A stretch of DNA of 64,000 bases from Carallia brachiata (lineage: Eukaryota; Streptophyta; Magnoliopsida; Malpighiales; Rhizophoraceae), in NCBI GenBank assembly GCA_021464245.1, contig JADCRB010000160.1:558001-622000 (forward strand), given 5' to 3'. Every line of letters starts with the position of its first letter. The stretch's first letter is position 1. A program made the position numbers and the translations under genes. The notes beneath the pieces were generated by a model. That model saw nothing but the letters and a program-made list of their open reading frames with translations. It did not search any database and had not been told where the DNA came from. Of this stretch, positions 1,770 through 24,246 are shown piece after piece.

Positions 1770-1790
1770 CTTTTCACCTATCATCTCTTG

Positions 1791-1950: not shown

Positions 1951-1970
1951 TAACAGGTATCTAACACATC

Positions 1971-3660: not shown

Positions 3661-3954
3661 CCTCAGCAAACCAAACCACCATCACTTCAAATCCATCAGA
3701 AGAGGCGACACACCGTAAGGGGGAGCCGCTCGACGATAAAGTCGACAATGGAGAAGGTATATGAAGCTCTTCAAACTCTTCTCGCTAACCCTCAGCTGTT
3801 TGCAACTTTGCAATCTACAGAAGTGTGACAGAATCAAGTCAGCAATACTCTCCACACCTCAGTTGGATCTCTGCCATCAGGTGATTCCAACTCGACGGAG
3901 CATCAAGCGATCCAAAATCACGTCGGATGTTACTTCGCTATCTCATTTTCAGAT

Positions 3955-4302: not shown

Positions 4303-5320
4303 GTCTGCATCACTACTTCAAGTGCTACAAGGATGGCATTCAAAAGGTCAATGCTGAATTAAAGCTGTTTGATGATGTTGAATCACATTTGGTAGATGTA
4401 GTCTTCTACACCGACATAGACAATCCGGAGATCGTTCCATAAAAAGATACTTGGACTGGGGGCATCCACAAAGAAGGAAAAGTTGTTGAAAACCCTGCCA
4501 ATGCTCAACCTTAGGCTCCAACAATTGAAAAGCTGCCACAGCCTGCTGAATTTCGTCCGAAGGATGTTGCATCTTTGAGCTCCACTCCAGTCTTATGCTA
4601 CGTGCCAAAGTGACGACGTCCAGAAGGTCAGCCCCCTTTCTCTTATTGCATAAATCCTAAACAGGAGGAAGGATACAATCAATCCAAGACAAAAGAACTG
4701 CACAACTTCAAGAGACTTACACTCTGTCAATACCAAAGATTGAGCCGATTTTGTCCTCAAAACCATTAAAGGTCTTGTTCAGACCCCTCACGGGGGTAGT
4801 TGAAGGCGGCTCACTTTCAGAAAGAAGAACACATGAAGGATTCGATCCTAATGCACAAGCTCTTTGCCAAGGCGGGCTATAACTTCTCAAACCCGAGCAC
4901 AATGGGTATGCTGCCATCGACGCATGGCACCACTTCTCAATCATCACAGTCCTGACCCGGCTTAGGCTATTAAGAGAAGTCACCTATGCAGATCACGCTA
5001 AAGAGCCAAAGTAGAGCAACTAATGTACATGCCATCACCGTCACCACCAAACAGGACAGGCCTGTCCAATTAAACAGAGAAGATGAAGTCAAAATCTCTG
5101 CATTACACGTCACAATTAGTAAGGAGGCTGATTCTGACTCATCGAACAGCGAAGTAAAGAGGCTCCCCCGAAACTCGAGGATGGTGGCCAGGCAACTGTT
5201 GATGAACTCAAAGAGGTCAATCTTAGCTCCTCAAAAGATCCCCGACCTACATTTGTAAGTGCTTTACTTACTGCAGAAGAAGAGCAAGAATATGTTCAGG
5301 TATTAAGTCAATACAGGGTC

Positions 5321-6050
5321 GTGTTCGCATGGAGTTACAAAAAAATGCCCGGACATGACCCGAAGATCGCGGTGCATCGTCTAGCAACAAAGAAGGGTGT
5401 TCGTTATGTCAAGCAGCCACAACGATGGTTCTGCCCAGAACTGATTCCACAAATCGAGGAGGAAGTCAACAAGCTGATCAATGCTGGTTTCATCCGAGAG
5501 GTCACCTACCCAACGTGGATTGCCAATATAGTCCCAGTAAGAAAGAAGAATGGACAGCTAAGGGTATGTGTTGACTTTTGAGATCTTAATAGGGCCTGTC
5601 CGAAAGATGACTTTCCGTTGCCCATAACAGAGATCATAGTTGATGCAACAACAGGCCACAAAGCATTGTCCTTCATGGATGGTTCTTCAGGCTATAACCA
5701 GATCAAGATGGCACCAGAAGATGAGGAGTTGACAGCATTTCGCACCCCAAAAGGTATATATTGCTACAAAGTTATGTCATTCGGATTAAAAAATGCTAGC
5801 GCCACTTATCAGTGTGCCATACAAAAAATTTTTGATGACATGCCGCACAAGATTGTAGCTATGCCGATGACTTAGTAGTAAACACTAAGGAGCGCAAAGA
5901 TCACCTCGAGGATCTCAAAATAGTGTTTGAAAGGTTTCGTAGGCATCAGCTCAAAAGGAACCCTCTCAAGTGTACATTCGGTGTCACATCAGGAAAGTTT
6001 CTTGGGTTCGTGGTGCGCCATCGTGGAATCGAAATTGATCAGTCAAAGGT
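5321..6050 (+). pseudogene. Reverse transcriptase remnant
   Basis: Fragments read VFAWSYKKMPG, the primer grip region NGQLRVCVDF, LSFMDGSSGYNQIKM and FGLKNASATYQ, all standard Ty3/gypsy RT blocks. The catalytic box is YADDLVV near 5850-5873, but a small deletion just before it shifts the frame. A TGA replaces the arginine after CVDF at 5579. RT continues to about 6050 (FLGFVVRHRGIEI). Confidence 0.85.
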
Positions 6051-6680
6051 TGAGACAATTCAAAAGATGCCTGAACCTAAAAACCTACACGAGCTGTGAA
6101 GTCTACAAGGAAGTTGGCCTACATTTGCCGTTTCATCTCCAACTCAGCTAGGAGGTGTCAACCTTTCCATCGGCTGATGAAGAAGGATGTCAACTTCGAG
6201 TGGGATGAAATTTGTAGCAAAGCTTTCGAGAGCATAAAGAAGTACCTTTCCAATCCACCTGTCCTAGGAGCTCCAATTCAAGGAAAGCAGTTGATTCTCT
6301 ACATTGCAGTGCATGAAAGATCTTTGGGAGTGCTACTTGCATAGGAAAATAAGTAAGGAAAAGAGGTTGCCCTATACTACTTGAGCAGAACCTTGAATGG
6401 TCCAGAGATGAACTACTCACTTATCGAGAAGACGTGTCTAGCGCTATTTTTTGTTGTTGATAAGCTAAAGCACTACATGCAAGCTCATACGATACATCTC
6501 ATTACCATAGGTGATCCTATCAAATATATCTTATCTAGACCAGTCTTGTCAGGACGACTTGCCAAGTGAGCAGTAATTCTACAGAGCTACAACATTGTCT
6601 TCATGCCCCAGAAAGTAGTCAAAAGACAAGCTCTAGCAGATTTCCTTGCAGATCACCCTGTCCCGTCCAATGTAAGTTCA
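6051..6680 (+). pseudogene. First RNase H (degenerate, Ty3-type) remnant
   Basis: It follows RT directly and includes a connection segment (MPEPKNLHEL), FEWDEICSKAFESIKKYL, and LILYIAVHERSLGVLLA where an active Ty3 RNase H would have a catalytic Asp-Ala-Ser. The aspartate is absent, as I would expect when a second RNase H has taken over. Frame shifts near 6100 and stop codons at 6342 and 6567 break it. Confidence 0.75.
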
Positions 6681-6689
6681 CAGATGATC

Positions 6690-7130
6690 TTCTGGATGAA
6701 GAGGTCTTTTACATTGAGACACTACCGCCATGGACGATGTTGTTCGATGGTGCAGCAAGGCGTGAAGGTGTTGGTGTCGGCATGGTGTATGTCACTCCTC
6801 AACGACAAATACTACTATATGCTATCATTCTCGGTGAGTTATGTTCAAATAATATTGCTGAATACCATGATTTAATCATTGGTCTTCAAATGGCTGTCGA
6901 TATGAAGATTCCAACTATAGAAGTCCAGAGATTCCCAGCTCGTCATCAACCAACTTAGAGGGTTGTATGATGTGAAGAAAGAGAACTTTGCGCCTTACCA
7001 TCAGCGTGCTCGACAGCTAATGAAAGAATTTGAAAGCATTACCTTGGAGCACGTGCCTCGACGAGAAAACACTCAGACTGACGCGTTGGCTAAACTGGCC
7101 ACTTCTCTTGCAAAGTCAGAATCCAGGCTA
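6690..7130 (+). pseudogene. Second RNase H remnant (Tat hallmark)
   Basis: MLFDGAARREGVGVG and SNNIAEYHDLIIGLQMA give the first aspartate and the glutamate of the DEDD active site. The third box (GDSQLVINQL in the sister copy) is frame-shifted here near 6930. The fourth is present as ENTQTDALAKLA. This domain removes RNA from the RNA-DNA hybrid in Tat elements. Confidence 0.8.
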
Positions 7131-8472
7131 CAGTTGTTGCCGTATGCCATAAATGGATCGTACCGCAGAAGGATGATTAAAAAACTACAGCAACCAACGT
7201 TGTATCTGTACGTCTTACGGAGGGCGAGGATTGGCGCCAACCAATCATTGACTACCTAAAGCACAAGAAACTACCTGAAGATCGCCGTCATAAGACAGAA
7301 ATTCAACGATGAACTCTCCACTTCATATATCTAAAAGATGCTCTGTATCGAAGGTCTTTTGATGGAGTTTTACTTCGCTGCCTTGGCAATGAAGAGGCAA
7401 AACAAGTTCTCGCTGAAGTACATTCTAGTGTTTGTGGCGGACATCAATCAGGGCCGAAATTGCACTTTCAACTCAGAAGAATGGGATATTACTGACCAAC
7501 CATGGTACGTGATTCCATTGAATTTGCTGAAACCTGTCAAGATTGTTAAATTCATGCCAATTACATACATCAACCATCAGAGCCACTGCATCCAACTGTC
7601 TCGTCTTGGCCCTTTGAAGTTTGGGGTCTCGACTTAGTGGGGCCCTTGCCAATGTCGTCCCTAGGCCACCTCTACATCCTGGCAGCAACAGACTATTTCT
7701 CGAAATGGGTCGAAGCAATTCCACTTAGAGAAGTAAAGAATGACCGTGTTGTCAATTTCATTCGGACTCATCTGATCTATCGCTATAGAGTCCCTCGGTT
7801 CATCATCACTAATAACAGCAAGCAGTTCTACAACAGCTTGGTGGACAAGTTCTGTGAAAAGTTCAAATTCAAGCAGGACAAGTCATCAATGCACAATGCC
7901 CCGGCTAATGGTTTGGCTAAAGTATTCAACAAGAACTTTGCACCTATTGCGGAAGGTAGTCTTTAAATCCAAAAGAAATTGGCATGACAGAATTCTGAAG
8001 GCATTATGGGCGTATCGTACAACTTACCGGACTCCAACATAGGCAACGTCATACTCACTTGTCTACGATGTCGAAGCAATACTGCCGTTAGAAACACATA
8101 TTTCATCTCTACACATGGCTGTTATGGAAAGACTCACACAAGAAGAGAATGCTCACCTACGTTTGGATGAGTTAGAAGCCCTCGATGAATGGAGACTTGA
8201 AGCACAATAGCAACTTGAGTGCTACCAAGCCCAGCTCACCAACACGCTCAACTGCAGGGTCCGCCCTCGATCTTCAAGTTGAGAACCTTGTTCTTATAGT
8301 ACGACAACCCATCAACTTGAAGCACTGGCCTGGTGACAAGCTTACTTCCAAATGGGACGGGCCATACTTAGTGCAGGAGGCCTATTCTCACAACACTTAC
8401 ATGCTATTAGACCAAAAAGGCATCCTAATTGGCCCGATCAATGATAAATTTCTGAAGCAGTATTATGTGTAA
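7131..8472 (+). pseudogene. Integrase remnant, end of pol
   Basis: The core reads LDLVGPLPMSSLGHLYILAATDYFSKWVEAIPL, with the first catalytic aspartate kept (shown here as separate blocks LDLVGP and TDYFSKWVEAIPL). The second is lost (ITNNS for ITDNG), and the catalytic glutamate is replaced by lysine (NGLAKVF). The C-terminal end KHWPGDKLTSKWDGPYLV is the usual post-core tail. The frame ends at TAA 8470-8472. The zinc-binding N-terminus (about 7131-7600) is in fragments. Confidence 0.85.
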
Positions 8473-8745
8473 ATATGTTAAAAAAAATCAAAAAAATCAA
8501 AAAAATAAAAAAAACCAAAAAAGAAAAAAAAAAGTCTGTAAGTCCCGATTTGAAAGCCCAAGCGAAAGTCTAAACTCGAAAGTCCAAGCCCAAATCAAGA
8601 AAGCCCAAAAACTCAAGTTCAATTCAAGACCCAAACACAAAACCTAAGCCCAAAAACCCAAATCCAATCCAAAATCCGAAACCCAAATATCCCAAGTTCC
8701 AGACACAGTCCAGAACCCAAGTTCAAAATCCAATCTAACTCCTGA
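8473..8745 (+). repeat. A-rich tract and CCCAAA minisatellite after pol
   Basis: An A-rich tract (8475-8535) is followed by diverged repeats built on CCCAAAxxCAAxTC. The sister element has both in the same order (16130-16510, read on the - strand), with a longer homopolymer and a clearer repeat. This block separates pol from the captured homeobox unit. Confidence 0.6.
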
Positions 8746-8755
8746 CCCACATGAG

Positions 8756-8762
8756 TATAAAT
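8756..8762 (+). promoter_or_regulatory. TATA-like box ahead of the WOX-like ORF
   Basis: TATAAAT lies 119 bases before the ATG at 8875. The sister element has TACAAAC here but a better TATAAAAG closer in (16071-16078). This suggests the captured unit brought a promoter and 5' leader. It is a sequence match only. Confidence 0.4.
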
Positions 8763-8874
8763 TGTGAACGGCCCAAAAATACAAAAGCAATCGTGAGTTT
8801 GAGTCTGAGTATCTGCTTTAGTCTCGCTTCAGTCTTCCCTGAATATCAAACCTTTGCTCCTGTACAGCAGAAAA

Positions 8875-9502
8875 ATGGAACCATCTGCAGAACAACAGGT
8901 TAAGGAAGAAGAAAGGTCACCCCAAAAAAGATGACACCCAATTATGGCGTAACTGCAAATTTTAGAGGAGTTCTTCTACAACAATGAAGGTATTATCCCT
9001 AACTCATCATAGATTCTCCAACTTGTTTCACGATTACGCCCGCTAGGGGCAGTCGAAGGAAAAAATGTATATTTTTTTGTTCCAGAATCGGAAAAACATA
9101 GAGAGAGCGGCGTTGCGAGATGCTATTTCCAAAGTACAGCCTATCGTTCCAATAGTAGATTTCACCGGTACAGCTTCACCCTGAAATGAAGCAGGTCCGA
9201 GCTCTACCACTACAATGGTCTCTCCAGGCTATATTGATCAAAGTCGTAGCCTGTGGAAGCGTACGTACTGGTCTTGGTGGTCTTACGGAGTTAGCCAAGG
9301 GTTCATCCCTCCTAAATACTTAAGTCTAGGAGGAACTTTTCTAGCAGAAAGAAGTAATTCCGGCGAAACTTTACCTCTCTTTCCAGAATATTCCGGCAGC
9401 ATCAACCAGCCTAAAAGCTTTAGCAACGTCAACATCATCGGCCCACCGGACGAGGACGGACTTGACTTGGAGCTGCGCCATGGGCCCCGTCAGGACGGCT
9501 GA
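8875..9502 (+). pseudogene. Captured WUSCHEL/WOX-like homeobox ORF (copy 1, broken)
   Basis: From ATG 8875 the reading goes through a homeodomain: SPxxR-stop-HP, then LQILEEFF, GIIPNSS, QLVSRLRPL and VEGKNV. One extra T in the run at about 9070-9077 shifts the frame inside helix 3, after which it reads FQNRK with the homeodomain asparagine. The rest is open apart from a TGA at 9181-9183: TGA 9500 closes a frame holding the WUS-box ETLPLFP (9365-9385) and an EAR-like LDLELRH. WOX proteins are plant transcription factors that control stem-cell identity; the WUS-box and EAR motif mediate repression. Lesions are W to TGA at about codon 20, TAA at codon 26 (shared with copy 2), CAG to TAG in helix 2, the frameshift and the TGA. 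It lies sense to pol, between integrase and the 3' LTR. Confidence 0.85.
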
Positions 9503-10404
9503 CAAGATAAGGTGCAACGACTTCTGCGGCACACGGTAACGACTTTCGTGACGCGCGTCAGCCACTGCCTCTCTTATCTCTTATACGGGACAGGGACGTG
9601 GAGGACCCTACTAGACTCTGCGTACCTTCTTTTAACTTTTCAAAAAGAAAAGAAAATCTTTGGTGTATATTTATATATCCTACATTCTCGAGTTATAACA
9701 CTTACCCTTCAACTCTTCTTTTTCTAAAAAAAAAAAAAAAAAGGCTAGTCTCTATACTTGTCTCAGAAAGTTCTTTGATCAAGAAGTTGGAGGTGCACGA
9801 GCTAAAAAAAGAAGGAGTAGTCCTCCTCGAGGAAACCCTAAAAGATCTCGAAACTCAGTCTCCAATAACAATGGTGTCATGGAGTTTCAACCACTCTCCT
9901 TAGTTCACATCTACCACAGAGGGACGAGAAACTGCAATTATCCTCATTTTCCTTCAGATGCGGCGACGTACAAGGAAGTTTCAACTACTCTCCTTTCGTC
10001 AGAGCAGACTCAAGAATCTTCACTACAGCCCGTCTCCCTATGTGCAGGCCTTGAAGTTCTGTAGTCCTGGACCTTCCTAATGGGAAGGTTCAAGTTCTTT
10101 ACCTACCGGATTATCCTCACCGGAGTTATGGAACTTCAAGACATATAAAAAATCCTTTGCGAATTATGGAAGCTCGACGTCACCTGGAGGCAAAATGTCA
10201 ATTTCTATATTGGCTGGAAGGCTGACTTCCTCAAGATCATATTGGTTTCCATTGCAATCCAACAACAGTTAGGCACAGTCGAAGTCAAAAGACTTCAACA
10301 TTCAGTGTTCATCAAAACATCTCAAGTTTCAAACTGGACTTCAAGATTCGGTTCGGATCACGACCGCAACGTTCTTCCTCACCGAATCTTGCAGTGAGAG
10401 CATT
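9503..10404 (+). other. Conserved block between WOX-like ORF and 3' LTR
   Basis: It matches 14421-15362 of the sister element nearly end to end. It contains a TATA-like stretch TATATTTATATATCC (about 9666-9680), then a conserved reading frame KKLEVHELKKEG (about 9780-9815) and a short ORF at 9879-10064. The last bases before the LTR, GCAGTGAGAGCATT (10391-10404), sit where the polypurine tract should be. I do not recognise a gene family here. It could be the 3' end of the captured gene or a second captured unit. Confidence 0.5.
9879..10064 (+). CDS. Short conserved ORF of unknown function (copy 1)
   Basis: The 61-codon frame starts MEFQPLSLVHIYHRG and ends VSLCAGLEVL. The sister element keeps the same start, nearly the same stop and about three quarters of the residues (14756-14947). 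No domain, signal peptide or membrane segment is apparent. Conservation may simply reflect shared descent of the DNA, so coding status is open. Confidence 0.3.
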   Translation: MEFQPLSLVHIYHRGTRNCNYPHFPSDAATYKEVSTTLLSSEQTQESSLQPVSLCAGLEVL

Positions 10405-11400
10405 TGTAAACAATTAAAAAAAAAAAAAGAAGAAAAGGTTGAAAAGTAAACCCACATGTTGCATGACATTGAGCATCTTCAAATTTGGTTGACAAAATCC
10501 ATGCATTTCCTTCAAACTTGGCCGGCAGATTTGTGCATTTTCAAACTAGGATGGCAAATCCAAGCACCTGCTACATTTTCTTCAAGATTGGCTGGCTAAG
10601 TTAGGTGGAATAGTAAATTCTCTTAGCCTATAATAGATCAATCCAGGATCTTGCAAAGGCAGTGGTAAAAAAAAAGGGCAATTATAGAAAGTTGCAAAAA
10701 TTTAATTCCCATTTGCATTACCACATTTCTCTTACATTTTTATACTCTTAGTGTATCATTCCCCCGATCATTTAGCAAATCTATAAACAGAAAAATACAG
10801 AGATTTGAGAGAGAAAAAAAATTTTGAAAATCTCTAAAGAAAATTTATCTTTTCCTACGTGTTTTTACTCTGCAGTATACTCTCCTAACTTTTTTTTAGA
10901 GATATTTCAGGTATAAACTCTAAAAAATTTGTTGTATCCATTTCTAAATTTATTTTTGGGTTTATATTTTCTAATCACTATAGATCTGGATTTGTGAGAA
11001 TATAGATCTAAAAATATCAAAATATTACAGATCTAGTTAAGATCAAGTCTCATGCGGCCCTCAGTAAAGTCCAGACACCTCGTCTGAGAACAAGTCCCTT
11101 CGACCCTCGATGAAATCAAGCTAGATCAAGTCAGATTAGATCTCTGCGGTTCTTAACCGTAGTCCAAACATTTACATTAGATTCAGTTTCAGTCTATTTA
11201 ATTCAAGATAAAGCTGTGTAAATTATTTCTGTCAAGATCAAATTTGTGTAACCCTTGACGGAGTCACCAAAGAACAGTAATAAGAGATTTATGAAAATCG
11301 ACCCCACGTAAATTTTTTTTTTATTAAATTTTTATTTATAAATTATAATTTATATTTTTTAGTCTAATTATTATAAGTTTGAGATTGACTTTGTACTTTT
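10405..11400 (+). repeat. 3' LTR of the + strand Tat element
   Basis: It starts TGTAAACAATT at 10405 and matches 723-1745 in order: U3 repeats, TATA-like TATAATAG (10629), the ACTCTCCTAAC block, GATCAAGT, and CGACCCCAC near 11296. Its exact right end is uncertain (about 11394-11400) because the terminal bases have diverged to TTGTACTTTT. Confidence 0.8.
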
Positions 11401-13520: not shown

Positions 13521-13525
13521 GCTCT
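13521..13525. repeat. Target-site duplication, left copy
   Basis: AGCTC here and GGCTC at 24247-24251 flank the - strand element exactly, matching in four of five bases. Joining the flanks restores a sequence matching the unfilled paralogue at about 26068-26110. Confidence 0.75.
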
Positions 13526-14185
13526 GAAACGGGATAAATTTCGAGACTAAAACAATTAAATTCAAAAATACAAAAATAAATTACAAATAAAAATATAAAA
13601 TAAAAGGAAATTTATGTGGGGTCGATCTCCGTAGATCTTCCGATTAGTGTTCTTTTTTTTTTTGACTCCGTCAAGGGCTGCACGATCTTGATCTTGACAG
13701 AAATAATTTCCACAGCTTTATCTTGAACTGAGTAGACTGAAACTGGATCTGTTTGGACGTTTAGACTACGGTTAAGAATTGTAGAGATCTGATCTAAGCC
13801 GATATGACTTAATTTCACCGAGGGTCGAATGGACTTATTCCCGGATGAGCTGTCTAGATTTTGCTGAAGGCCGTATGAGGCTTCATCCCAGCCGGATTTG
13901 TAGTAATTTGATATTTTTATATCTATATTCCATAAATTCAGATCTAGAGCGATCCGAGAATATAAACCTAAAAATAATTTTAGAAATGGAAACAGCAAAT
14001 TTTTTGGGTTTACCCTTGAAATATCTCTAAAAAAAGAGTTAGGAGAGTATACTGCAGAGTAAAAGCACGTAGCAAAAGGAGAAATTTTTTCGATAGATTT
14101 TTCAAAATTTTCTTTTTCTCTTAAATTCTCTAAATTTTTCTATTTACAGATTTGCTGAATCTGTTTTGAACTGGGGGGCAAGGGC

Positions 14186-14194
14186 CTATTTATA
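14186..14194 (-). promoter_or_regulatory. LTR TATA box (3' LTR)
   Basis: TATAAATAG on the - strand, just downstream of the 27-bp repeats. The same box is at 23859-23867 in the 5' LTR. Confidence 0.65.
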
Positions 14195-14217
14195 GGGTTT
14201 CCCCTCTCATGTGAAAA

Positions 14218-14397
14218 CATGCGTGTGAAAGGAATAAGTCGACTTTTCCGTGCGAAAGGAATAAGTCGACCTTTCCGTGTGAAAGCAGGCGTGCGAAAGG
14301 AATAAGTCGACTTTTCCGTGTGAAAGCAGGCGTGCGAAAGGAATAAGTCGACTTTTCCGTGTGAAAGCATGCGTGCGAAAGGAATAAGTCGACTGTT
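14218..14397 (-). repeat. U3 tandem repeats, 27-bp class with GTCGAC (about 5 units)
   Basis: Units have the form GAAAGGAATAAGTCGACTTT followed by TCCGTGT, some with an added GCAGGCGTGC-type spacer. There are about five GTCGAC cores here and about ten in the other LTR. They fill the enhancer position of U3. Confidence 0.85.
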
Positions 14398-14420
14398 GAC
14401 TTTTTTTTTTAATGTTTACA

Positions 14421-14434
14421 AATGCCCCCACTTC
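14421..14434 (-). other. Polypurine tract
   Basis: On the - strand GAAGTGGGGGCATT immediately precedes the 3' LTR start. This is the expected place for the plus-strand primer of reverse transcription. Confidence 0.65.
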
Positions 14435-14755
14435 AAGGGTCGGTAAGGAAGAACTTTTGCAGACGTGATCCGCACCGAGTCTTAAAGTACAGTTTGAAAC
14501 TTGAGATGTCCTGATGAACATTGAATGTTGAAGTCTTCTAACTCTGACTATGCCTACTGTTGTTGGATCGCAATAAGAATCTGATACGATCTTGAGAAAG
14601 TTAGCACCCCAGCCAATATAAAAATTGACATTCTGACTCCAGGTGCGGTCGAGCTTCCATAGCTCGCAAAGGCTAGCAACGGTTCTTTGAAGTTCCAAAG
14701 CTCTGGTAAGGATGATCCGGTAGGCAAAGAACTTGAACCTCCCCAAGAGGAAGGC

Positions 14756-14947
14756 TCAGCACCTCGAAACTTCAAGACCGGCACACAGAGAGACTGACTG
14801 TAGTGATGATTCCCGAGTCTGCTCCAACGTAAGGAGAGTAGTTGGAACTTTCCTGTACGTCGCCGCATCCAAAGGAAGATTAGGATGATTGCAGCTTCTC
14901 ATTCCTCTGTGGTACATGTGAACTAAGGAGAGTAGTTGGAACTCCAT
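14756..14947 (-). CDS. Short conserved ORF of unknown function (copy 2)
   Basis: The 63-codon frame starts MEFQLLSLVHMYHRG and ends VSLCAGLEVSRC. It keeps the start and frame of the ORF at 9879-10064. I recognise no family. Confidence 0.3.
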   Translation of the reverse strand: MEFQLLSLVHMYHRGMRSCNHPNLPLDAATYRKVPTTLLTLEQTRESSLQSVSLCAGLEVSRC

Positions 14948-15289
14948 GACACCGATGGCGTTGGAGGCTGAGTTTCGAGAGCTTTTAGGGATCCCTCGAG
15001 GAAGACTACTCCTTCTTTTCTTAGCTTGTGCGCCTCCAACTTCTTGAGCAAAGAACTTCCTGAGACAAGTGCAGAGACTAGTTATTCTCTTTTGAGAAGA
15101 AGAAGAGCTAAGAGAGGAGTATTATGGCTCGGACATGCAGGATATATATACATAACATAAGAGTTTTTTTTTTTTTTTGAAAAGTTAAAAAGGAGGTACG
15201 CAGAATCGAGTAGGGTCATCCACGTCCCTTTCCCGCATAAGAGACAAAAAAGACAGCAGCTGACGCGCGTCACGAAAGTCGTTACTGTG

Positions 15290-15352
15290 TGTTGCAGAAG
15301 TCGTTGCCGTGTGCTGCAGAAGTCGTTGCCGTGTGCTGCCAAAGTCGTTGAA
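15290..15352 (-). repeat. Short tandem repeat next to the WOX-like 3' end
   Basis: Three units of about 21 bp (on the - strand AACGACTTCTGCAGCACACGG with small changes) stand immediately after the WOX-like stop. The + strand element has one unit at the same place (about 9511-9540), so the array expanded after the copies separated. Confidence 0.7.
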
Positions 15353-15362
15353 CCTTATCTTG

Positions 15363-15983
15363 TCAGCCATCCTAGCGGGGCCCGAGGCGCAGCTCCAAGT
15401 CAAGCTCGACCTCGTTTCGTGGGCCAATGATGTTGACGTCGCTTTCCGGCTGGTTGATACTGCCAGAGTATTTTGGAAAGAGAGGCAAAGTTTCGCCGGA
15501 ATGACTATTTTCTGTTAGAAAAATTCCTCCTAAACTTAAGTACCTAGGAGGGATGAACCCTTAGCTGACTCCGTAAGACTACCAGGACCAGTACGCATGC
15601 TCCCACAGGCTACGGCTTTGATCGTTATAGCCTGAAGAGACCATTACCGTGGTAGAACTCGGACCTGCTTCATTTGAGGGCGAAGTTGTACCGGTGGGAT
15701 CTATTATCGGAACGGCAGACTGTTCTTTGAAAAAAGCAGCTCTCAGTGTTGGTTTCTTCCTGCTTCTCCAACTCTGGAACCAATAAAACACATTTTTTCC
15801 TTTGATTGCCCTGAACGGGCGCAATCGTGAGACAAGTTGGTAAATCTGAGATGCATTAGGCATAATACCTCCATTGTTGTGGAAGACTTCCTCCAAAATT
15901 TGCAGTTATGCCATGGTTGGTTGCCATCTTGTGCGGGGTGACTTTTCTTCTCCTTTGTCTTGAGGTTCTGCAACTGGTTCCAT
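15363..15983 (-). pseudogene. Captured WUSCHEL/WOX-like homeobox ORF (copy 2, no frameshift)
   Basis: ATG 15983 to TGA 15365-15363 is exactly 207 codons in one frame, interrupted by four stops (codons 26, 135, 141, 204). Codons about 17-77 are a WOX homeodomain: RTRWQPT at 17-23, LQILEE at 27-32, PNASQI at 42-47, and the family signature GKNVFYWFQ at 62-70. The next residue is Ser where homeodomains have Asn; copy 1 keeps Asn. Codons 164-170 are a WUS-box, ETLPLFP, and 194-200 an EAR-like LDLELRL. WUS-clade proteins have these parts in this order. All four stops are one transition from CAA, CAG or TGG. It lies sense to pol and just before the 3' block, with no introns, so capture through RNA is likely. 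Confidence 0.88.
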
Positions 15984-16070
15984 CTTTCTTGTGGCAGAAG
16001 AGCAAAGGTCTGGTAGGTGGTGAAGATCGATTGAGACTGATGCTGAGTTTCAGACTCAAACCCTCCGTCG

Positions 16071-16078
16071 CTTTTATA
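16071..16078 (-). promoter_or_regulatory. TATA box ahead of the WOX-like ORF
   Basis: TATAAAAG on the - strand lies about 90 bases before ATG 15983, a normal plant TATA-to-start spacing. It follows a leader shared with copy 1. It would allow expression separate from the LTR promoter. Confidence 0.5.
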
Positions 16079-16129
16079 TTTTTTAGCCGTTCACAGTTTG
16101 TACTCATGCGGGTCAGGAGTTGGATTGAA

Positions 16130-16460
16130 TTTTGAATTTGGGTTCTGGACTGTGGTTGGAACTTGGAATTTTTGGGGTTTAGGCTTTGGATTGGATTTGG
16201 GTCGAGTGTTTGGGCTTCTAGACTTGGATTTTTGGATTTGGGTCGAGTGTTTGGATTTGGACTTTTGGATTTGGGTTGAGTGTTTGGATTTGGACTTTTG
16301 GATTTGGGTTTTTTGGACTTAGGTTTTGTGTTTTCTGAATTGGGCTCAAGTGTTTGGGTTTGGATTTTCGGGTTTGGATTTTCGCTTGAACTTTCAGATC
16401 GGGACTTCCGAACTTTTTTTTTTCGATTTTTTTTCTATTTTTTTTTTTGATTTTTTTTTT

Positions 16461-16494
<34 letters not shown>

Positions 16495-16510
16495 ATTTTT
16501 TTAAACATAT
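16130..16510 (-). repeat. Minisatellite and homopolymer between pol and WOX-like ORF
   Basis: On the + strand it reads as repeats of TTTGGATTTGGACTTTTGGA with TTGGGTCGAGTG variants (about 16180-16310), then a long T run with scattered GA (16420-16500). It is a longer version of the block at 8473-8745. Confidence 0.8.
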
Positions 16511-16535
16511 TTACACATAATACTGTTTCAGAAAT

Positions 16536-17600
16536 TTACCATTGATTGGGCCGATTCGGACGCCTTCTTGGTCTGACAGCATGTAAGCGTTGTGAGTAGG
16601 CCTCCTGCACTAATGGCCCGTCCCATTTGGAAGTAAGCTTGTCACCAGGCCGATGCTTCATGTTGATGGGCCGTCGCACTGCAAGAACAAGGTCTCCAAC
16701 TTGAAAAGATCGAGGGCGGACCCTGCGGTTGAACGTGTTGGTGAGCCGGGCTTGGTAGCACTCAAGTTGCTGTTGTGCTTCGAGCCCTTTCATCGAGAGC
16801 TTCTAACTCATCCAGACGTAGGCGAGCATTCTCCTCCTGTGTGAGTCCTTCCAGAACAGCCATGCGCAGAGATGGAATCTGTGTTTCCAACGGCAGTATT
16901 GCTTCGACACCGTAGACAAGTGAGTATGGCGTCGCCTGTGTTGGAGTCCGGTAAGTTGTACGATACGCCCATAATGCCTCCGGAATTCTGTCATGCCAAT
17001 CTCTTTTGGATTTAGAGACTACCTTCCGCAACAGGTTGCATAAGGTCTTGTTGAATGCTTCGCCAAGCCATTTGCTGGGGCATTGTACATGGATGACTTG
17101 TACTGCTTGAACTTGAACTTCTCGCAGAGCTTGTCAATTAAGCTGTTGTAAAACTGCTTGCCATTATCAGTGATGATGAATCGAGGGACTCCATAGCGAT
17201 AGATCAGCTGAGTCCGGATGAAATTGGCAACATGCTCCTTCTTTACCTCTCTAAGTGGAATGGCTTCGCCCATTTTGAGAAGTAGTCGTTGCTGCGAGGA
17301 TGTACAGGTGACCCAGGGATGACTTTGGCAAGGGCCCCACTAAGTCGAGACCCCAAGCTTCAAAGGGCCAGGATGAGACAGTTGGATGCAGTGGCTCCGG
17401 TGGTTGATGTATGTAATTGCATGAAATTGACAAGCTTGACAAGTTTTAGCAAACTCAATGAATCACGTACCATGGTTGGCCAGTAGTATCCCATCCTTCT
17501 GAGTTGAAGTGCAACTTAGGCCCTATTGATGTCCGCCACAAACACCAGAATGTGCTTCAGTGAGAGCCTGTTTTGCCTCTTCATTGCTAGGCAGCGAAGT
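16536..17600 (-). pseudogene. Integrase, frame-shifted
   Basis: The core reads WGLDLVGPLPKSSLGHLYIL with the first aspartate, then VPRFIITDNGKQFYNSL with the second. A one-base deletion at about 17064 falls at the catalytic glutamate, turning NGLAEAF-type sequence into NGLAKHS. Another break lies near 17265 (AATDYFSKW region). The tail RDWHDRIPEALWAYRTTYRT and KHRPGDKLTSKWDGP follows. Integrase inserts the cDNA into the host genome; this copy cannot do so. Confidence 0.9.
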
Positions 17601-18964
17601 AAAACTCCATCAAAAGACCTTCGATACAGAGCATCCTTGAGATATATGAAGCGGGGAGCTCGTCGTTGAATTTCTGTCTTATGACGACGATCTTCGGGCA
17701 GCTTCCCGTGCTGTAGGTAGTCAATGATTGGTTGGCGCCAATCCTCGTCCTCCATGAGACGTACAGATACAGCGTTGGCTGCTGTAGTTTCTTCATCATC
17801 CTTCTGTGGCACTATCCATTTCTGGCATACGGCAACAACTGTAGCCTGGATTTCTGACTTTGCAAGAGAAGTGGCCAGGTTAGCCAACGCGTCTGCCTGA
17901 GTGTTTTCTCGTCGAGGCACATGCTCCAAGGTGATGCTTTCAAATTCATCCATTAGCTGTCGAGCACGTTGATGGTAAGGCGCAAGGTCCTCTTTCTTCA
18001 CGTCATACAATCCTGTAAGTTGGTTGATGACGAGCTGGGAATCTCCATGGACTTCTATAGTTGGAATCTTCATATCGACAGCCATTTGAAGACCAATGAT
18101 CAAAGCCTGGTATTCAGCAACATTATTTGAACATAACTCACCGAGAATGATAGCATATGGTAGTATTTGTCGTTGAGGAGTGACAAACACTATGCCGGCA
18201 CCAGCACCATCACGCCTTGCTGCACCATCAAAGAACATCGTCCATGGTGGTGTCTCAATGTAAAAGACCTCTTCATCTGGAAGATCATCTGTGAACTCCC
18301 AATCTGACGGAACAGGGTGATCTGCAAGGAAGTCTGCTAGAGCTTGTCCTTTGACTGCTTTTTGAGGCACGTAGACAATGTCGTAGCTTTGTAGGATTAC
18401 TGCCCACTTGGCAAGTCGTCCTGACAAGATTGGTCTAGATAAGATATATTTGACAGGATCAGCTCTGGCAATGAGACGTACCGTGTGAGCTTGCATGTAG
18501 TGCCTCAGCTTGTCAATGGCAAAGAACAGTGCTAGACATGTCTTTTCAATGGGCGAATAACTCAGCTCCGGACCGTTTAGTGTTCTGCTCAAGTAATACA
18601 GGGCAACTTCCTTTCCCTGCTCGTTTTCCTGTGCAAGCAAGGCTCCCAAAGATCTTTCCTGCGCTGCAATGTAGAGAATCAACGACTTTCCTTGAATTGG
18701 AGCTCCCAGGACTGGTGGATTGGAAAGGTACTTCTTTATGCTCTCAAAGGCTTTGCTGCAAGCTTCGTCCCACTCGAAGTTGACATCCTTCTTCATCAAC
18801 CGATGGAAAGGTTGACATCTCCCAGCTAAATTGGAGATGAAACGGCGAATGTAGGCCAGCTTTCCTTGTAGACTTCGCAGCTCGTGCAGGTTTTTAGGTT
18901 CAGGCATCTTTTGAATTGCCTCAACCTTTGACTGATCAACTTCGATTCCACGATGGCGCACCAC
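17516..18964 (-). CDS. pol fragment: degenerate RNase H plus second RNase H (482 codons)
   Basis: This is the longest open frame in the window. Residues about 1-60 are the RT end and connection (MPEPKNLHELRSLQGKLAYI). About 75-205 is the Ty3-type RNase H, in which LYIAAQERSLGALLA lacks the catalytic aspartate. About 240-380 is a second RNase H with all four DEDD residues: FFDGAARRDGAGAG, NNVAEYQALIIGLQ, VHGDSQLVINQL and NTQADALANLA. The end (RRAPRFIYLKDALYRR) enters the integrase N-terminus. In Tat elements the second domain is thought to supply the RNase H activity. The frame is a piece of a longer polyprotein, broken upstream at about 19010 and downstream at about 17520-17600. Confidence 0.9.
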   Translation of the reverse strand: MVRHRGIEVDQSKVEAIQKMPEPKNLHELRSLQGKLAYIRRFISNLAGRCQPFHRLMKKDVNFEWDEACSKAFESIKKYLSNPPVLGAPIQGKSLILYIAAQERSLGALLAQENEQGKEVALYYLSRTLNGPELSYSPIEKTCLALFFAIDKLRHYMQAHTVRLIARADPVKYILSRPILSGRLAKWAVILQSYDIVYVPQKAVKGQALADFLADHPVPSDWEFTDDLPDEEVFYIETPPWTMFFDGAARRDGAGAGIVFVTPQRQILPYAIILGELCSNNVAEYQALIIGLQMAVDMKIPTIEVHGDSQLVINQLTGLYDVKKEDLAPYHQRARQLMDEFESITLEHVPRRENTQADALANLATSLAKSEIQATVVAVCQKWIVPQKDDEETTAANAVSVRLMEDEDWRQPIIDYLQHGKLPEDRRHKTEIQRRAPRFIYLKDALYRRSFDGVLLRCLAMKRQNRLSLKHILVFVADINRA

Positions 18965-19946
18965 GAACCCAAGAAACTTTCCTGATGTGACACCGAATGC
19001 ACTTGAGAGGGTTCATTTTAGCTGATGCCTGAAGTCTTTCGAAACATGTCTTGAGATCCTCGAGGTGGTCTTTGCGCTTCTTAGTCTTTACAACTAAGTC
19101 ATCAACATAACATTCTACAATCTTGTGCAGCATGTCATCAAAAATTTTTTGCATAGCACGTTGATAAGTGGCGCCAGCATTTTTTAATCCAAACGGCATA
19201 ACTTTGTAGCAGTATATACCTTTTGGGGTGCGGAATGCTGTCAACTCCTCGTCTTCTGGTGCCATTCTGATTTGGTTATAGCCTGAAGAACCATCCATGA
19301 AAGACAATGCTTCGTGACCCGTTGTTGCATCGACTGTGATCTCCGTTATGGGCAACGGAAAGTCATCTTTCGGGCAGGCTCTGTTAAGATCTCGAAAATC
19401 AACACATACCCTCAACTGTCCATTCTTCTTTCTTACCGGGACAATTGGCAATCCACGTTGGGTAGGTGACCTCTCGGATGAAGCCAGCATTGATCAGCTT
19501 GTTACCTCCTCCTCGATTTGTGGAATGAGTTCCGGGCGGAACCGTCGTTGTGGCTGCTTGACAGAACGAACACCCTTCTTTACTGCTAGACGATGCACCG
19601 CAATTTTTGGGTCAAGTCCAGGCATTTCTTTGTAACTCCATGCGAACACGTCCCTGTATTGACTTAATACCTGAACATATTCTTGCTCTTCTTCTGCAGT
19701 AAGTAAAGCACTTACAAATGTAGGTCGAGGATCTTCCGGAGAGCCAAGATTGACCTCCTTGAGTTCATCAACAGTTGCTTGGCCACCATCTTCAAGTTCC
19801 GGGGGAGCCTCCTTACACTTCACCTGATGAGTCGGACTCAGCCTCCTCGCTAATTGTGACATGAAATGCAGAACCTCTGACTTCACCTTCTTTGTTTGAC
19901 TGGATAAGCCTGTCTTGTTTGGTGGTGGTGGTGATGGCACGTGCAT
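18936..19946 (-). pseudogene. Reverse transcriptase, two frames
   Basis: The first frame (19946-19494) carries VFAWSYKEMPGLDPKIAVHR and FRPELIPQIEEEV. A 1-base loss at about 19497 and a compensating 2-base loss at about 19444 change the frame for the stretch between. The second frame (19490-18936) has NGQLRVCVDFRDLNRACPKD, LSFMDGSSGYNQIRM, FGLKNAGATYQ and the catalytic YVDD (19098-19109). Another shift near 19015 ends it in the thumb. Only small indels separate it from a full RT. Confidence 0.92.
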
Positions 19947-20257
19947 CAGCTGCTCGGCTTCGGCTCTTTAGCGTGATCCGCACAGGTGACTTCTCCTGAT
20001 AGCCTAAGCCAGGTCGGGACTGTGATGTTTGAGAAGCGGCCCATGTGTGGACGGCAGCGTACCCATTGTGCTCGGGTTTGAGAAGTCATAGCCCGCCTTG
20101 CCAAAGCTTGTATGCATTAGGATCAAATCCTTCATGTGTTCTTCTTTCTGGAAGTGAGCCGCCTTCGACTGCCCCCGTGTGTGGTTTGACGAAGCCTTTT
20201 AATGGTTTTGAAGACAAACCGGCTCAATCTTTGGTATCGGCAGAGTGTAAGTCTCCT

Positions 20258-21150
20258 TCAGGTTGTGCAGCTCCTTTTTTTTGGGTTGGCTATGTCCTTG
20301 CTCCTGTTTAGATCAATACAATAAGAGAAAGGGGGTTGACCTTCTGAGCGTCGTGACTTCGGCACATAGCGTAGGACTGGAGTGGAGCTTGAAGATGCAA
20401 CATCCTTCGGACGAAGTTCAGCAGGCTGTGGCAGCTTTTCATTTGTTGGAGCCTGGGTTGGCATTGGCAGGTTCTTCGACAGCTTTTCCCTTTTTTGGAT
20501 GCCCCCAGTCCAAGTAGCTTTTGATGGAATGATCTCCGGATTGTCTGTGTCGGTGTAGAAGACTGCATCCGCCAAATGTGATTCAGCATCATCGAACGGC
20601 TTTAAGTCAGCATTGACCTTTTGAACGCCACCATTGTAGTACTTGAAGCACTGATGCAGGCTTGAGAGCACAACTCCATTTCCATGAATCCACGGTCGTC
20701 CTAGCAACATCTTATATGTGGTACGTGCATCATCACGTGAAATAGAGTGCTAGAAGTGAGATTACCGATAGTTAGCTCCAAGCGAATCATCCCAATTGCT
20801 TTCTGTCCTCCTTGATTAAAGCCATGAATCATCAAGCGGCTGTCTGATAATTCATCAACACCGATGCCGAGCTCCTTTATGGTGGATTTTGGGATAATAT
20901 TGACTGCTGAGCCATCGTCGATCAGAATACGTCGGACCTTCTGTTCTCTCACATAGCCTGATACATACAGCGGCCGATTGTGGGGTTTGGACCCCAGCAG
21001 GAGATCCTCATCTGAAAATGAGATAGCAGAGTAACATCCGACGTGATTTTGGTCCGTGATGCTCCGTCGAGTGGAATTACTTGATGGCAGAGGTTCAGCT
21101 GAGGTCTGAAGAGTATTGCCGACTTGCCACCTTTTTCTTTGATTGCGCAA
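20258..21150 (-). pseudogene. Protease and linker, one frameshift
   Basis: The frame 21150-20701 has the active-site box ILIDDGSAVNIIP and the flap region DSRLMIHGFNQGGQ. An extra base near 20735 moves the frame; the remaining part KMLLGRPWIHGNGVV is in the ORF 20710-20258, followed by a low-conservation linker. Cleaves the gag-pol polyprotein. Confidence 0.85.
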
Positions 21151-21169
21151 ACAGCTGAGGGTTAGCGAG

Positions 21170-22948
21170 AAGGGTTTGAGAGCTTCATATACCTTCTCTT
21201 GTCGACTTTTTGTCGAGCGGCTCCTCCTTACGGTGTGTCACTCTTCTGATGGTTTGAAGTGATGGTGGTCTGGTTTGCCGAGGTTACGCCTTCCTGGTCC
21301 AGAATGATTTTATTCTCTTGAGCTTCATGATTAGCTCCTTCAGGACGAAACACTTCTCGGTTGGATGACTTACTATCCGGTGATATTTGCAGAATCTCGG
21401 ATCGCTGACTCGATCCTTTTCATTCGGCCGCTTGCACTCTGGGAGTTCGATCAGCTTCGCCTCCAAGAGTTGTCAAGAATGTCGGGGACGTCTGAGTCGG
21501 GGAATGGATACTGCTTCTGCTCCAACTCTCGCAATGTCACCTTCCGCCTTTCCTGTTGTTTTGGCTGAGTTATTTGAGTCGGAGGATTTACCTTAGCTTT
21601 AGCTCCCACTTTTACTGGTGCGGCTTCAACAGTCATCACTTCTTTCCTTTTCCGAGCTGGGTTTCTTAATCTCCCTTCTTGCCCCTTGCTGGTCCAACTG
21701 GATGGGAACCGTGCCTCCGGAAGTCTGGATGCTTATCTCCATATCATGTGCGCGGGTCGCCAGTTCTTCGAAGGTTCGGGGTTTGACACCCTGCAGGATG
21801 TATAACAGCTCCCAATGCATTCCCTGGATGCACATCTCCACGGCAGAAGTCTCCGTCAGGCGATCTTTGCAGTCCAAGCTGAGGGCACGCCATCTGTTGA
21901 TGTATTCGACAACGGGCTCTCCTTTCCTTTGTTTGGTGCTGGTAAGCTCCATCATACTTACCGTCCTTCGAGTGCTGAAAAATCTGTTGAGGAACTCTCG
22001 TTGTAGCTGTTCCCAACTGTCGATCGATTCTGGTTCAAGATTTATGAACCAGGTGAAAGCGGTCTCCCTGAGTGAACGAACAAACTGCTTCACCAAGAGA
22101 TCTCCGTAAGTCCCTGCGTTGTTGCAGGTTTCAACGAAGTGGGCGATGTGCTGTTTGGGATCGCCTCGTCCGTCGAATTGTTGAAATTTGGGCGGCTGGT
22201 AGCCCAAAGGCATGTTGAGACTTTCGATCCGTCTGGTGTACGGTTTGACGTACATCTGTGATCCTTGGAAGGATGTAGCTTGTTGTAGGCGGATCGTATT
22301 AGCTATCATTTCCTGCAATTGTTGAATAGATAGCGAAACTATAGAATTTGAGGGTGGCAGCTGTGTAGAACTACCTGGTCGCTTTTCTACAGTGAAGACG
22401 TCGGCTGGTGTGGCTTCTAGAGTGAAACTGGGCCGATATGGTTGCTCATCGCGGATTTCGGGATCAATTTGGATCGGGGCTTTTACTTTGAGAGCGATGA
22501 TCTATTGATCTTTTTTCTCCACGACTCTGATTAACTACAAAATCTTGTTCTCCAATTCCGAAATTCTTTCTTCTGTACTGGTTGTGTTGGTCATCATGAC
22601 GGCAACAGATGAGGCTCCGCGAAAGACTGAGGGAGAGAACTCTTCTGATTCCTCTGTGTGGATCTCTACAGAATGAGTTGGATTCTGCTGAACGAGCTTC
22701 GTCATGTTGCCCCCGACTTCGATCGGAGTGGGTGATTGACTCCTCCATGCGGCAAGAGAGTCAGAGGAGAGATCCTATTGTGCGAGCTGTGGACTTTCCG
22801 TTTCGATATTTTGTTGGGTTTGGACGGCAAGAAATTGTGTCCGTCCCTGGGTTTCTGGACCTGTGTACCCAAGTAGGGCAGTTGATGCAGGTAATGGAGT
22901 CATTGTCTTCTTGTTGATACCAGCGGCTGTAATTCTCTTTGGTGTCAT
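21170..22948 (-). pseudogene. gag, interrupted
   Basis: ATG 22948 opens MTPKRITAAGINKK, matching the start in the + strand copy. An in-frame TAG follows in the N-terminal part. The retrotransposon gag domain is open at 22318-21626 (QFDGRGDPKQHIAHFVE, ETAFTWFINLEPESIDSW, FFSTRRTVSMMEL). A KYHRIVSHPTEKCFVLKEL segment near 21380 is the zinc-knuckle-like end. It would form the particle that packages element RNA. Confidence 0.85.
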
Positions 22949-22971
22949 TTGATGTACTGAACACCTGTAAA

Positions 22972-23155
22972 TTTTTTTTTTTTACTTTTTTACCTTTTTC
23001 GTCTTTTTCTCTATTTTTTCTTTTTGTCTTTCTTTTTTCTTTTTCTTTTTTCTTTCGGTTCCTCTTTTTTTTCCTTTTTTCTTTTTTTTCTTTTCTTTTT
23101 TTTCTTTTTTTCTTTTCTCTACTGCTTCTTTTGCCTTTTTTTTTTTAAGGAACAA
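22972..23155 (-). repeat. Purine-rich leader
   Basis: The + strand is a T/C run, so the element RNA is A/G-rich here. This matches 1791-1950. Apparent ORFs of lysine, phenylalanine and leucine in this run are composition artefacts. Confidence 0.7.
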
Positions 23156-23172
23156 GAGATGGGAGGCGAAGA

Positions 23173-23190
23173 GGTCCACCGAGCGTACCA
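23173..23190 (-). other. Putative primer binding site
   Basis: TGGTACGCTCGGTGGACC on the - strand begins six bases after the 5' LTR end, in the same place as in the + strand element. The primer tRNA is not assigned. Confidence 0.55.
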
Positions 23191-23196
23191 AAAATT

Positions 23197-24246
23197 TGAA
23201 TCGGGATAAATTTCGAGTCTAAAACAATTAAGCTCAAAATAAAAAATAAATTACAAATAAAAATATAAAATAAAAGAAAATTTACGTGGGGTCGATCTCC
23301 GTAGATCCTCCGATTAGTGTTCATTTTTTTTTTTTGACTCTGCCAAGGGCTGCACGAGCTTGATCTTGACAGAAATAATTTTCACAACTTTATCTTGAAC
23401 TGGGTAGACTGAAACTGGATCTGTTTGGACGTTTAGACTACAGTTAAAAACCGCAGAAACCTGATCTGAGCCGATCTGGTTTAATTTCACCGAGGGTCGA
23501 ATGGACTTGTTCCCGGATGAGCTGTTTGAATTTTGCTGAGGGCCGTATGAGGTTTAATTCCAGCCAGATTTGTAGTAATTTGATATTTTTATATCTATAT
23601 TATCATAAATTCAGATCTATAGCGATCCGAGAATATAAACCTAAAAGTAATTTTAGAAATGGAAATAACAAATTTTTTTAGGCTTACCCCTGAAAAATCT
23701 CTCAAAAAGGAGTTAGGAGAGTATACTGCAGAGTAAAAGCACGTAGAAAATGAGAAATTTTCTTGAGAGATTTTTCAAAATTTTCTTTTTCTCTCAAATT
23801 CTCTGAATTTTTCTGTTTACAGATTTGTTGAATCTGTTTTGAACTGGGGGGCAATGACCTATTTATAGGGTTTCCCCTCTCGTTTGAAAACATGCGTGTG
23901 AAATGAATAAGTCGACTTTTCTGTGTGAAAGCAATAAGTCGACTTTTCTGCATGAAAGCACGCGTGCGAAAGGAATAAGTTGACTTTTCCGTGTGAAAGC
24001 ACGCGTGCAAAAGAAATAAGTCGACTTTTCCGTGTGAAAGGAATAAGTCGACTTTTCCGTGTGAAAGCACGCGTGCGAAAGAAATAAGTCGACTTTTCCG
24101 TGTGAAAGGAATAAGTCGACTTTTCCGTGTGAAAGGAATAAGTCGACTTTTCCGTGTGAAAGGAATAAGTCGACTTTTCCGTGTGAAAGTACACATGCGA
24201 AAGGAATAAGTCGACTATTGACTCTTTTTTTTTTTTAATGTTTACA
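23197..24246 (-). repeat. 5' LTR of the - strand Tat element
   Basis: It starts TGTAAACATT at 24246 and ends CCCGATTCA at 23197. It contains about ten 27-bp U3 repeats, TATAAATAG at 23867-23859 and the shared R/U5 part. Apart from the repeat number it matches 13526-14420 closely. Confidence 0.92.
23890..24220 (-). repeat. U3 tandem repeats, 27-bp class with GTCGAC (about 10 units)
   Basis: The units are the same as at 14218-14397 but about twice as many. The last four or five are nearly identical, which points to recent expansion. Confidence 0.9.

What the first reader, a model, noticed from the sequence alone, without database searches (positions are those of the whole stretch)
15363..15983. 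A Tat LTR retrotransposon family carries a captured WUSCHEL-type homeobox gene
In the - strand element, a single 207-codon frame sense to pol holds RTRWQPT, PNASQI and GKNVFYWFQ in homeodomain order and spacing, then a WUS-box (ETLPLFP) and an EAR-like LDLELRL near the C-terminus. WOX proteins of the WUS clade are known to have exactly these parts. The ORF sits between integrase and the polypurine tract and therefore travels with the element. The second copy (8875-9502) shows that it moved as part of the family. A mobile element spreading a stem-cell regulator, or a dominant or decoy version of one, would be unusual. The lack of introns suggests capture through RNA.
Basis: partly seen in the sequence, partly recalled or inferred. 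Interest (0 to 1): 0.96.

Follow-up and report, generated by a model that had tools for sequence, protein, structure and literature searches.

The report
Jumping gene carrying a stem-cell regulator
A family of plant jumping genes with hundreds of copies carries a gene derived from the plant stem-cell switch WUSCHEL, and its protein sequence shows signs of having been kept by selection, also in copies that lost their own replication genes.

Summary
Confirmed and extended. The minus-strand frame at 15363-15983 is a decayed copy (3 internal stops, homeodomain Asn lost) of a 203-codon gene in WUSCHEL order: homeodomain, WUS-box, C-terminal LELRL. It lies between integrase and polypurine tract of a Tat-type LTR element (13525-24246). 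The host genome (337.5 Mb) holds 832 places with a 30-base homeodomain signature (control 0). Of 72 distinct places fetched, 56 have integrase just upstream. Of the other 16, 15 share a leader without integrase; two read in full are LTR elements with 5-bp target duplications, no gag-pol match, and the WUS-derived frame as longest. WUSCHEL's four base-reading residues are kept in 48-50 of 50 stop-free copies and in 4 of 4 copies of a second subfamily. dN/dS is 0.44 (homeodomain 0.17) in stop-free copies and 0.48 (0.42) in 7 copies picked by integrase; near-identical copies give about 1. The host's two WUS genes show two introns; the element ORF none. Likely a processed WUS captured long ago and kept as an element gene. 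What it does to host stem cells is inference; no expression data. Nearest kin of the host by WUS: Erythroxylum (Malpighiales).

The parts
13525..24246 (-). Tat-type Ty3/gypsy element B (5' LTR 24246-23197, 3' LTR 14420-13525; flanks GAGCC / GAGCT, 4 of 5 target-duplication bases alike)
   Evidence: LTR pair 91.0% identical over 847 columns; ends, PBS and PPT read
15363..15983 (-). WUSCHEL-derived ORF, decayed copy (subfamily 1); 3 internal stops, homeodomain Asn to Ser
14421..14434 (-). polypurine tract next to 3' LTR
   Evidence: GAAGTGGGGGCATT directly before TGTAAACA
23181..23194 (-). primer-binding-site-like stretch after 5' LTR
   Evidence: within 2 mismatches of the same stretch in L041/L043; no tRNA was matched to it
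21626..22318 (-). gag fragment
   Evidence: Pfam Retrotrans_gag 3.2e-15
20701..21150 (-). protease fragment
   Evidence: Pfam Asp_protease_2 0.0033, below its cut-off
18936..19490 (-). reverse transcriptase fragment
   Evidence: Pfam RVT_1 2.5e-28
17516..18964 (-). RNase H and second (Tat-type) RNase H
   Evidence: Pfam RT_RNaseH 3.3e-23 and RVT_3 8.4e-25 in one frame
723..11390 (+). second element A (5' LTR 723-1744, 3' LTR from 10405; PBS-like stretch at 1748; outer end approximate)
   Evidence: 83.8% identical to B over 9509 columns
8875..9502 (+). WUSCHEL-derived ORF of element A (subfamily 2), stops and a frameshift in the homeodomain
7637..7966 (+). integrase fragment of element A
   Evidence: Pfam rve 3.4e-6, below its cut-off

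Best explanation
A Tat-type LTR retrotransposon captured a processed, intronless transcript of a WUSCHEL gene, and the family has since used it as its own gene downstream of pol. Shown: the WUS-type protein, its fixed place in the element, hundreds of signature places, stop-free copies, dN/dS below 1 that is lowest in the homeodomain, and LTR elements without gag-pol that keep it as longest frame. Inferred: the protein enters the nucleus, binds WUS-type TGAA sites through the conserved contacts and recruits TOPLESS-type co-repressors (recalled partner) through WUS-box and LELRL. It would thereby tune host stem-cell or germ-lineage programmes to favour inheritance of new copies. I put capture plus constraint at about 0.93 and this particular mechanism at about 0.4; the score below is for the whole.
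For: Homeodomain and motifs. Base contacts of WUS (roles from passages of PMC7203112): R38 49 of 50, Q89 49, N90 50, R94 48 in stop-free copies, and 4 of 4 for each in subfamily-2 copies L086-L089. WUS-only extra position 54 is filled: H in 49 of 50, Y in 4 of 4. Host WUS1 and WUS2 each show two introns, the element ORF none. 832 places, control 0. Integrase upstream at 56 of 72 distinct places, gap 511-783 bp. Leader of L041 shared over 664-1450 bp by 15 of 16 integrase-less places, over only 128-131 bp by the 56 others. L041 and L043: LTRs 99.1% and 98.2% identical, TSDs GTTAA and GTGAC, no gag-pol match inside. dN/dS: 50 stop-free copies 0.44, homeodomain 0.17; 15 copies with the gag-pol-less leader 0.475, bootstrap 0.35-0.71; 7 copies picked by integrase 0.48, homeodomain 0.42; these plus 4 picked by the 30-mer 0.53, bootstrap 0.45-0.71, homeodomain 0.37; pair L024-L087 of the two subfamilies 0.35, Fisher 4.5e-5.
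Against: No expression, binding or protein data. TGAATGAA is not enriched in LTRs or leaders. Of 4 copies taken from the pattern list, 0 are fully open, although scattered one-base indels in near-identical copies may be assembly errors. The rows were picked by similarity to the ORF, which favours low dN. At dS 0.05-0.15 the ORF is less constrained than integrase in stop-free rows (0.42-0.53 against 0.17-0.21; at dS 0.2-0.3 the order turns, 0.38 against 0.47). Tree placement beside WUS rests on a branch of 4.97 with support 85/70. Shifted frames also give values below 1 (0.54-0.69 in three of five), and one antisense frame nearly equals the homeodomain value (0.172 against 0.167), so part of the low ratio may be composition.
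Confidence: 0.72

Rival explanations
1. Passenger: one capture hitch-hiked through the family and is retained by copying alone; the protein does nothing for the element.
For: Many copies are broken, including the two in the window and 4 of 4 taken from the pattern list; gene capture by plant LTR elements is known (PMC7264820, passages).
Against: Ratios below 1 in three overlapping samples, falling in stop-free rows from about 1.0 at dS under 0.02 to 0.38 at dS 0.2-0.3; base contacts kept in both subfamilies; elements without gag-pol kept this gene.
Confidence: 0.15
2. Decoy or dominant-negative: the short protein (203 against about 300 residues) occupies WUS sites or co-repressors and weakens host WUS, for instance its reported antiviral role in stem cells (that role is recalled, no call).
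For: By my reading of the alignment it lacks the acidic stretch of WUS before the WUS-box and the dimer residue F101, but keeps base contacts, WUS-box and LELRL.
Against: No functional data; such shortening is also compatible with a simple repressor.
Confidence: 0.25
3. Self-regulator: the protein acts on the element's own LTR promoter, as retroviral trans-activators do.
For: Common logic of accessory genes in retroviruses; the elements without gag-pol keep LTRs and this gene. Mild uncorrected excesses: single TGAA in one window LTR (25 against 18.6, 13 of 200 shuffles) and in the L041 leader (19 against 13.7, 14 of 200), CACGTG in another window LTR (2 against 0.08, 8 of 200).
Against: TGAATGAA (up to one mismatch) is at or below the shuffled mean in 10 of 10 LTR, leader or 3' stretches tested, and TAAT too.
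Confidence: 0.12
4. Integration tether: the homeodomain guides the pre-integration complex to WUS-type sites.
For: DNA-binding residues conserved; other Ty3/gypsy elements target integration through an accessory domain (stated in a PMC9289625 passage).
Against: It is a separate frame from integrase, downstream of it; target sites were not analysed here.
Confidence: 0.08

Closest known systems
WUSCHEL (WUS) of flowering plants
   Same: Homeodomain with the WUS-only extra position, base contacts R38/Q89/N90/R94, ETLPLFP WUS-box, C-terminal LELRL
   Different: 203 residues, 33-39% identical to 13 WUS proteins in the alignment, intronless, in hundreds of mobile-element places, end of recognition helix and F101 changed
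Orchid Gypsy_Pa_2799 elements with a captured 2-ODD m6A demethylase ORF (PMC9289625, passages seen)
   Same: Ty3/gypsy with dual RNase H carrying a host-type additional ORF kept across subfamilies
   Different: There an RNA demethylase in Phalaenopsis; here a homeodomain regulator in a genome nearest Erythroxylum, also in derivatives without gag-pol
Retand lineage elements with antisense TRP28 ORFs (PMC11963269, parts 1 and 2 of 5 read)
   Same: Non-chromovirus Ty3/gypsy with extra coding between pol and 3' LTR, possibly DNA-binding
   Different: Here the ORF is sense to pol and WUS-derived; Table 1 of that paper lists no homeodomain
Maize Bs1 and other gene-transducing plant LTR elements (named in a PMC7264820 passage)
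   Same: Host gene sequence carried inside an LTR element
   Different: [quoted passage not shown] here hundreds of places, with signs of constraint

Membership tests
WUS-type WOX homeodomain protein | Homeodomain profile match | tested here: met
   PF00046 2e-7 for window copy, 2.2e-12 for L024; WUSCHEL 6ry3 2.7e-18 for L024
WUS-type WOX homeodomain protein | Extra residue at WUS position 54, absent in other WOX | tested here: met
   67 against 67 residues without gap; H in 49 of 50, Y in 4 of 4 subfamily-2 copies, whereas WUS has Y (criterion)
WUS-type WOX homeodomain protein | Base-contact residues R38, Q89, N90, R94 | tested here: met
   49, 49, 50 and 48 of 50 stop-free copies; 4 of 4 in subfamily 2. 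Window copy B lacks N90
WUS-type WOX homeodomain protein | WUS-box and EAR-like C-terminus | tested here: met
   TLPLFP and LELRL align with WUS; the Pfam EAR match is below its cut-off
WUS-type WOX homeodomain protein | Grouping with WUS in a tree | tested here: inconclusive
   On the WUS side, 85/70, stem length 4.97; outgroup rows were homeodomain pieces only
Tat clade of Ty3/gypsy | gag, PR, RT, RNase H, second RNase H, integrase in this order | tested here: met
   (PR and integrase matches below Pfam cut-offs); no RT tree was made
Tat clade of Ty3/gypsy | LTRs with PBS, PPT and 5-bp target duplication | tested here: met
   L041 GTTAA, L043 GTGAC; window B 4 of 5; PBS not matched to a tRNA
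Retand lineage | Long pol-3'LTR region (2.9-6.6 kb) with antisense TRP28 ORF | tested here: inconclusive
   About 2.1 kb, and no plus-strand frame of 90 aa or more between 14421 and 16786, but the copies are decayed and no TRP28 profile was run
Capture through RNA | Donor introns absent from the captured gene | tested here: met
   Two introns in host WUS1 and WUS2 by interrupted protein matches, none in the ORF; the donor gene itself is not known

The most novel reading that the evidence does not exclude
A retrotransposon lineage maintains its own WUSCHEL variant to manipulate the plant stem-cell niche or its defence, and streamlined elements now spread with that regulator as their only substantial gene: a selfish DNA counterpart of a viral oncogene in plants.
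Probability: 0.35. Interest if true: 0.96.

Novelty: new variant of a known kind. Interest (0 to 1): 0.87.

Why it matters
Additional ORFs of plant Ty3/gypsy elements most often lack known domains (PMC9289625 passage). A captured master regulator of stem cells under constraint would show that plant retrotransposons can evolve tools aimed at the cells that give rise to the germ line. It also warns that 'WUSCHEL-like' gene models in such genomes may belong to mobile DNA. Five literature searches listed no paper on a WUS- or homeobox-bearing LTR element. I saw titles and starts of abstracts of the listed ones only (20 of 70, 15 of 70, 15 of 55, 1 of 1, 0), and the library holds open-licence PMC papers.

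Tried and rejected
Considered L042 as an element without gag-pol; rejected because its upstream repeat runs into an integrase tail at a junction holding an N. Considered the ORF a chance frame; rejected on E-values and recurrence. Tested LTR self-regulation by TGAA/TAAT/G-box counts; no support from TGAATGAA or TAAT, mild uncorrected excesses of other words. Searched viral contigs for close relatives: none. Protein database search with a stop-free copy: 419 of 495 candidates at E<=1e-3; the best 120 are listed, 33-53% identical, each with a precomputed homeodomain; no close element ORF from another species is among them. Search for a published host genome gave no match I could use. A count of subfamily 2 by its own 30-mer did not complete.

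Rows dropped: WOX rows were kept only if one in-frame piece covered 180 residues or more, and L041 and L043 were dropped as repeats of L003 and L011 (69 WOX rows, 50 stop-free; 41 integrase rows, 15 stop-free). In one search, 11 copies (7 picked by integrase, 4 by the 30-mer) went into the ratio; pieces under 70% identity were left out, L092 and window copy A then gave no codons, so 10 contributed. L084-L088 were chosen from integrase copies lacking the exact 30-mer, so that sample leans to diverged copies.

Full report
What is there. The minus-strand stretch 15363-15983 reads, with stops, as MEPVAEP...RTRWQPT...GKNVFYWFQ...ETLPLFP...LDLELRLGPR. Pfam gives a homeodomain at 2e-7 and the solved WUSCHEL homeodomain matches at 8.7e-16. 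In the protein database 9 of 39 candidates pass E<=1e-3, named WUSCHEL or homeobox/hypothetical plant proteins. The copy is dead: three internal stops and the homeodomain Asn changed to Ser. The stop after GPR is the usual end in other copies.

The elements. Two copies of one family lie on opposite strands. Element B runs 24246-13525 on the minus strand, with LTRs 91.0% identical; element A runs from 723 to about 11390 on the plus strand. Gag, protease, reverse transcriptase, RNase H, a second RNase H (RVT_3) and integrase lie in order (the protease and integrase matches are below Pfam cut-offs). Dual RNase H is described as a Tat feature in a passage of PMC9289625. The WUS-like frame lies between integrase and the 3' LTR in both.

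A genome-wide family. The window lies in a held genome of 337.5 Mb in 164 contigs. A search with the window ORF gave 151 matches from 150 scored of 2221 first-look candidates (not all listed), many without stops. A 30-base homeodomain signature with up to 3 mismatches occurs 832 times (392 + 440), and the reversed control 0 times; 100 places are listed and I did not check the rest one by one. I fetched 74 stretches from the matches, standing for 72 distinct places (L003 and L041, and L011 and L043, are the same places; L001 is window copy B). Integrase lies upstream on the same strand in 56 of 72, with gaps of 511-783 bp. From the other side, of 40 high-scoring integrase copies on the contigs covered by the pattern list, 20 have the exact signature 753-988 bp downstream. 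Of the remaining 20 I fetched the stretch downstream of 5 (L084-L088), and 5 of 5 carry a WOX sequence with a changed signature, two of them clearly broken (L084 with 5 stops, L085 frameshifted); L089 and L090, integrase copies on other contigs, carry one too.

Elements without gag-pol. Of the 16 places without integrase, 15 share 664-1450 bp of the L041 leader, while the 56 integrase-bearing stretches share only 128-131 bp next to the ORF. L041 and L043, read in full, begin TGTAAACACC, carry a primer-binding-site-like sequence and a polypurine tract, and have target duplications GTTAA and GTGAC. Their LTRs are 99.1% and 98.2% identical. No window gag, protease, RT or RNase H frame matches their interiors at E<=0.01, the integrase probe does not either, and the longest Met-started frame is the WUS-derived one (203 aa in L043; 180 aa from an inner Met in L041, which has an N-terminal frameshift). 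The other 13 places of this class were seen only 1.4-1.5 kb upstream. With recalled rates of 7e-9 and 1.3e-8 per site per year, L041 dates to about 0.6 or 0.3 My and window B to about 6.8 or 3.7 My.

Is the protein kept? Pairwise dN/dS among 50 stop-free copies is 0.44 and 0.17 in the homeodomain; codon bootstraps on 150 sampled pairs give 0.33-0.63 and 0.09-0.39. In the same rows the ratio is about 1.0 for pairs with dS under 0.02 and falls to 0.38 at dS 0.2-0.3, as expected if copies drift after insertion but were constrained before. These rows were picked by similarity to the ORF, which favours low values. Seven copies picked by integrase give 0.48 overall and 0.42 in the homeodomain; with 4 more picked by the 30-mer (11 given, 10 contributing) 0.53 (0.45-0.71) and 0.37. 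The 15 copies with the gag-pol-less leader give 0.475 (0.35-0.71). Against this: shifted frames of the same rows give 0.54-1.37, and one antisense frame gives 0.172 in the homeodomain. Integrase is tighter at dS 0.05-0.15, though not at 0.2-0.3. Of 4 copies from the pattern list 0 are fully open. One-base indels scattered differently among otherwise near-identical copies suggest that part of the breakage is assembly error.

What kind of WOX. The base-reading residues of WUS (R38, Q89, N90, R94; PMC7203112 passages) are present in 49, 49, 50 and 48 of 50 stop-free copies and in 4 of 4 subfamily-2 copies, and the WUS-only position 54 is filled, by H in 49 of 50 and Y in 4 of 4. F101, a dimer contact, is not kept, and subfamily 2 swaps F85/Y86. 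The tree places the ORF on the WUS side of the host WOX genes at 85/70 on a stem of 4.97, so the donor cannot be named. The host WUS pair groups with the Erythroxylum pair at 98/91; Erythroxylum belongs to Malpighiales. Host WUS1 (L031) and WUS2 (L032) show two introns by interrupted protein matches; the element ORF is continuous.

Mechanism. Shown: structure, spread, retention, dN/dS below 1. Inferred: nuclear action at WUS-type sites with a repressor tail. Most likely (about 0.4) it tunes host meristem or germ-lineage programmes in favour of the element; a decoy of host WUS is next. The self-regulation idea found little support in LTR motif counts. No expression data were available.

Known or new. 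LTR elements with extra or captured ORFs are known (PMC7264820, PMC9289625 and PMC11963269, seen in passages or parts). Word searches of these three main texts for WUSCHEL and homeobox gave 0. Five library searches listed no such element. I file it as a new variant of a known kind.

Noticed in passing
window 40018-43331 and 56301-59569: A duplicated stretch about 16.3 kb apart (73.9% over 3447 columns) with similar frames at 40813-41217 and 57186-57629; Pfam was run on the second only (2OG-FeII_Oxy PF03171, 5.1e-20).
   Followed up: no
L086-L088 against the 50 stop-free rows: Two WOX subfamilies (FYWFQNRRSRKK and YFWFQNRRHRET). Between them dS is 0.41 in the homeodomain but 0.10 in the C-terminal part, which suggests exchange between subfamilies.
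   Followed up: partly
L085-L090: Single-base indels scattered differently among near-identical copies, perhaps long-read assembly errors; counts of broken frames in this genome may be too high.
   Followed up: no
L016 3109-2508: A second, opposite-strand WOX-like copy (66% identical over 180 residues) directly after the first.
   Followed up: no
window 15906-15908 (-) and 8950-8952 (+): The stop at codon 26 (MA*LQ) is shared by window copies A and B and by L095; a repeated C-to-T change at a methylated site is my guess.
   Followed up: no
L041 1854-2080 and 5807-6031: A 47-bp tandem repeat inside both LTRs of an element without gag-pol.
   Followed up: no
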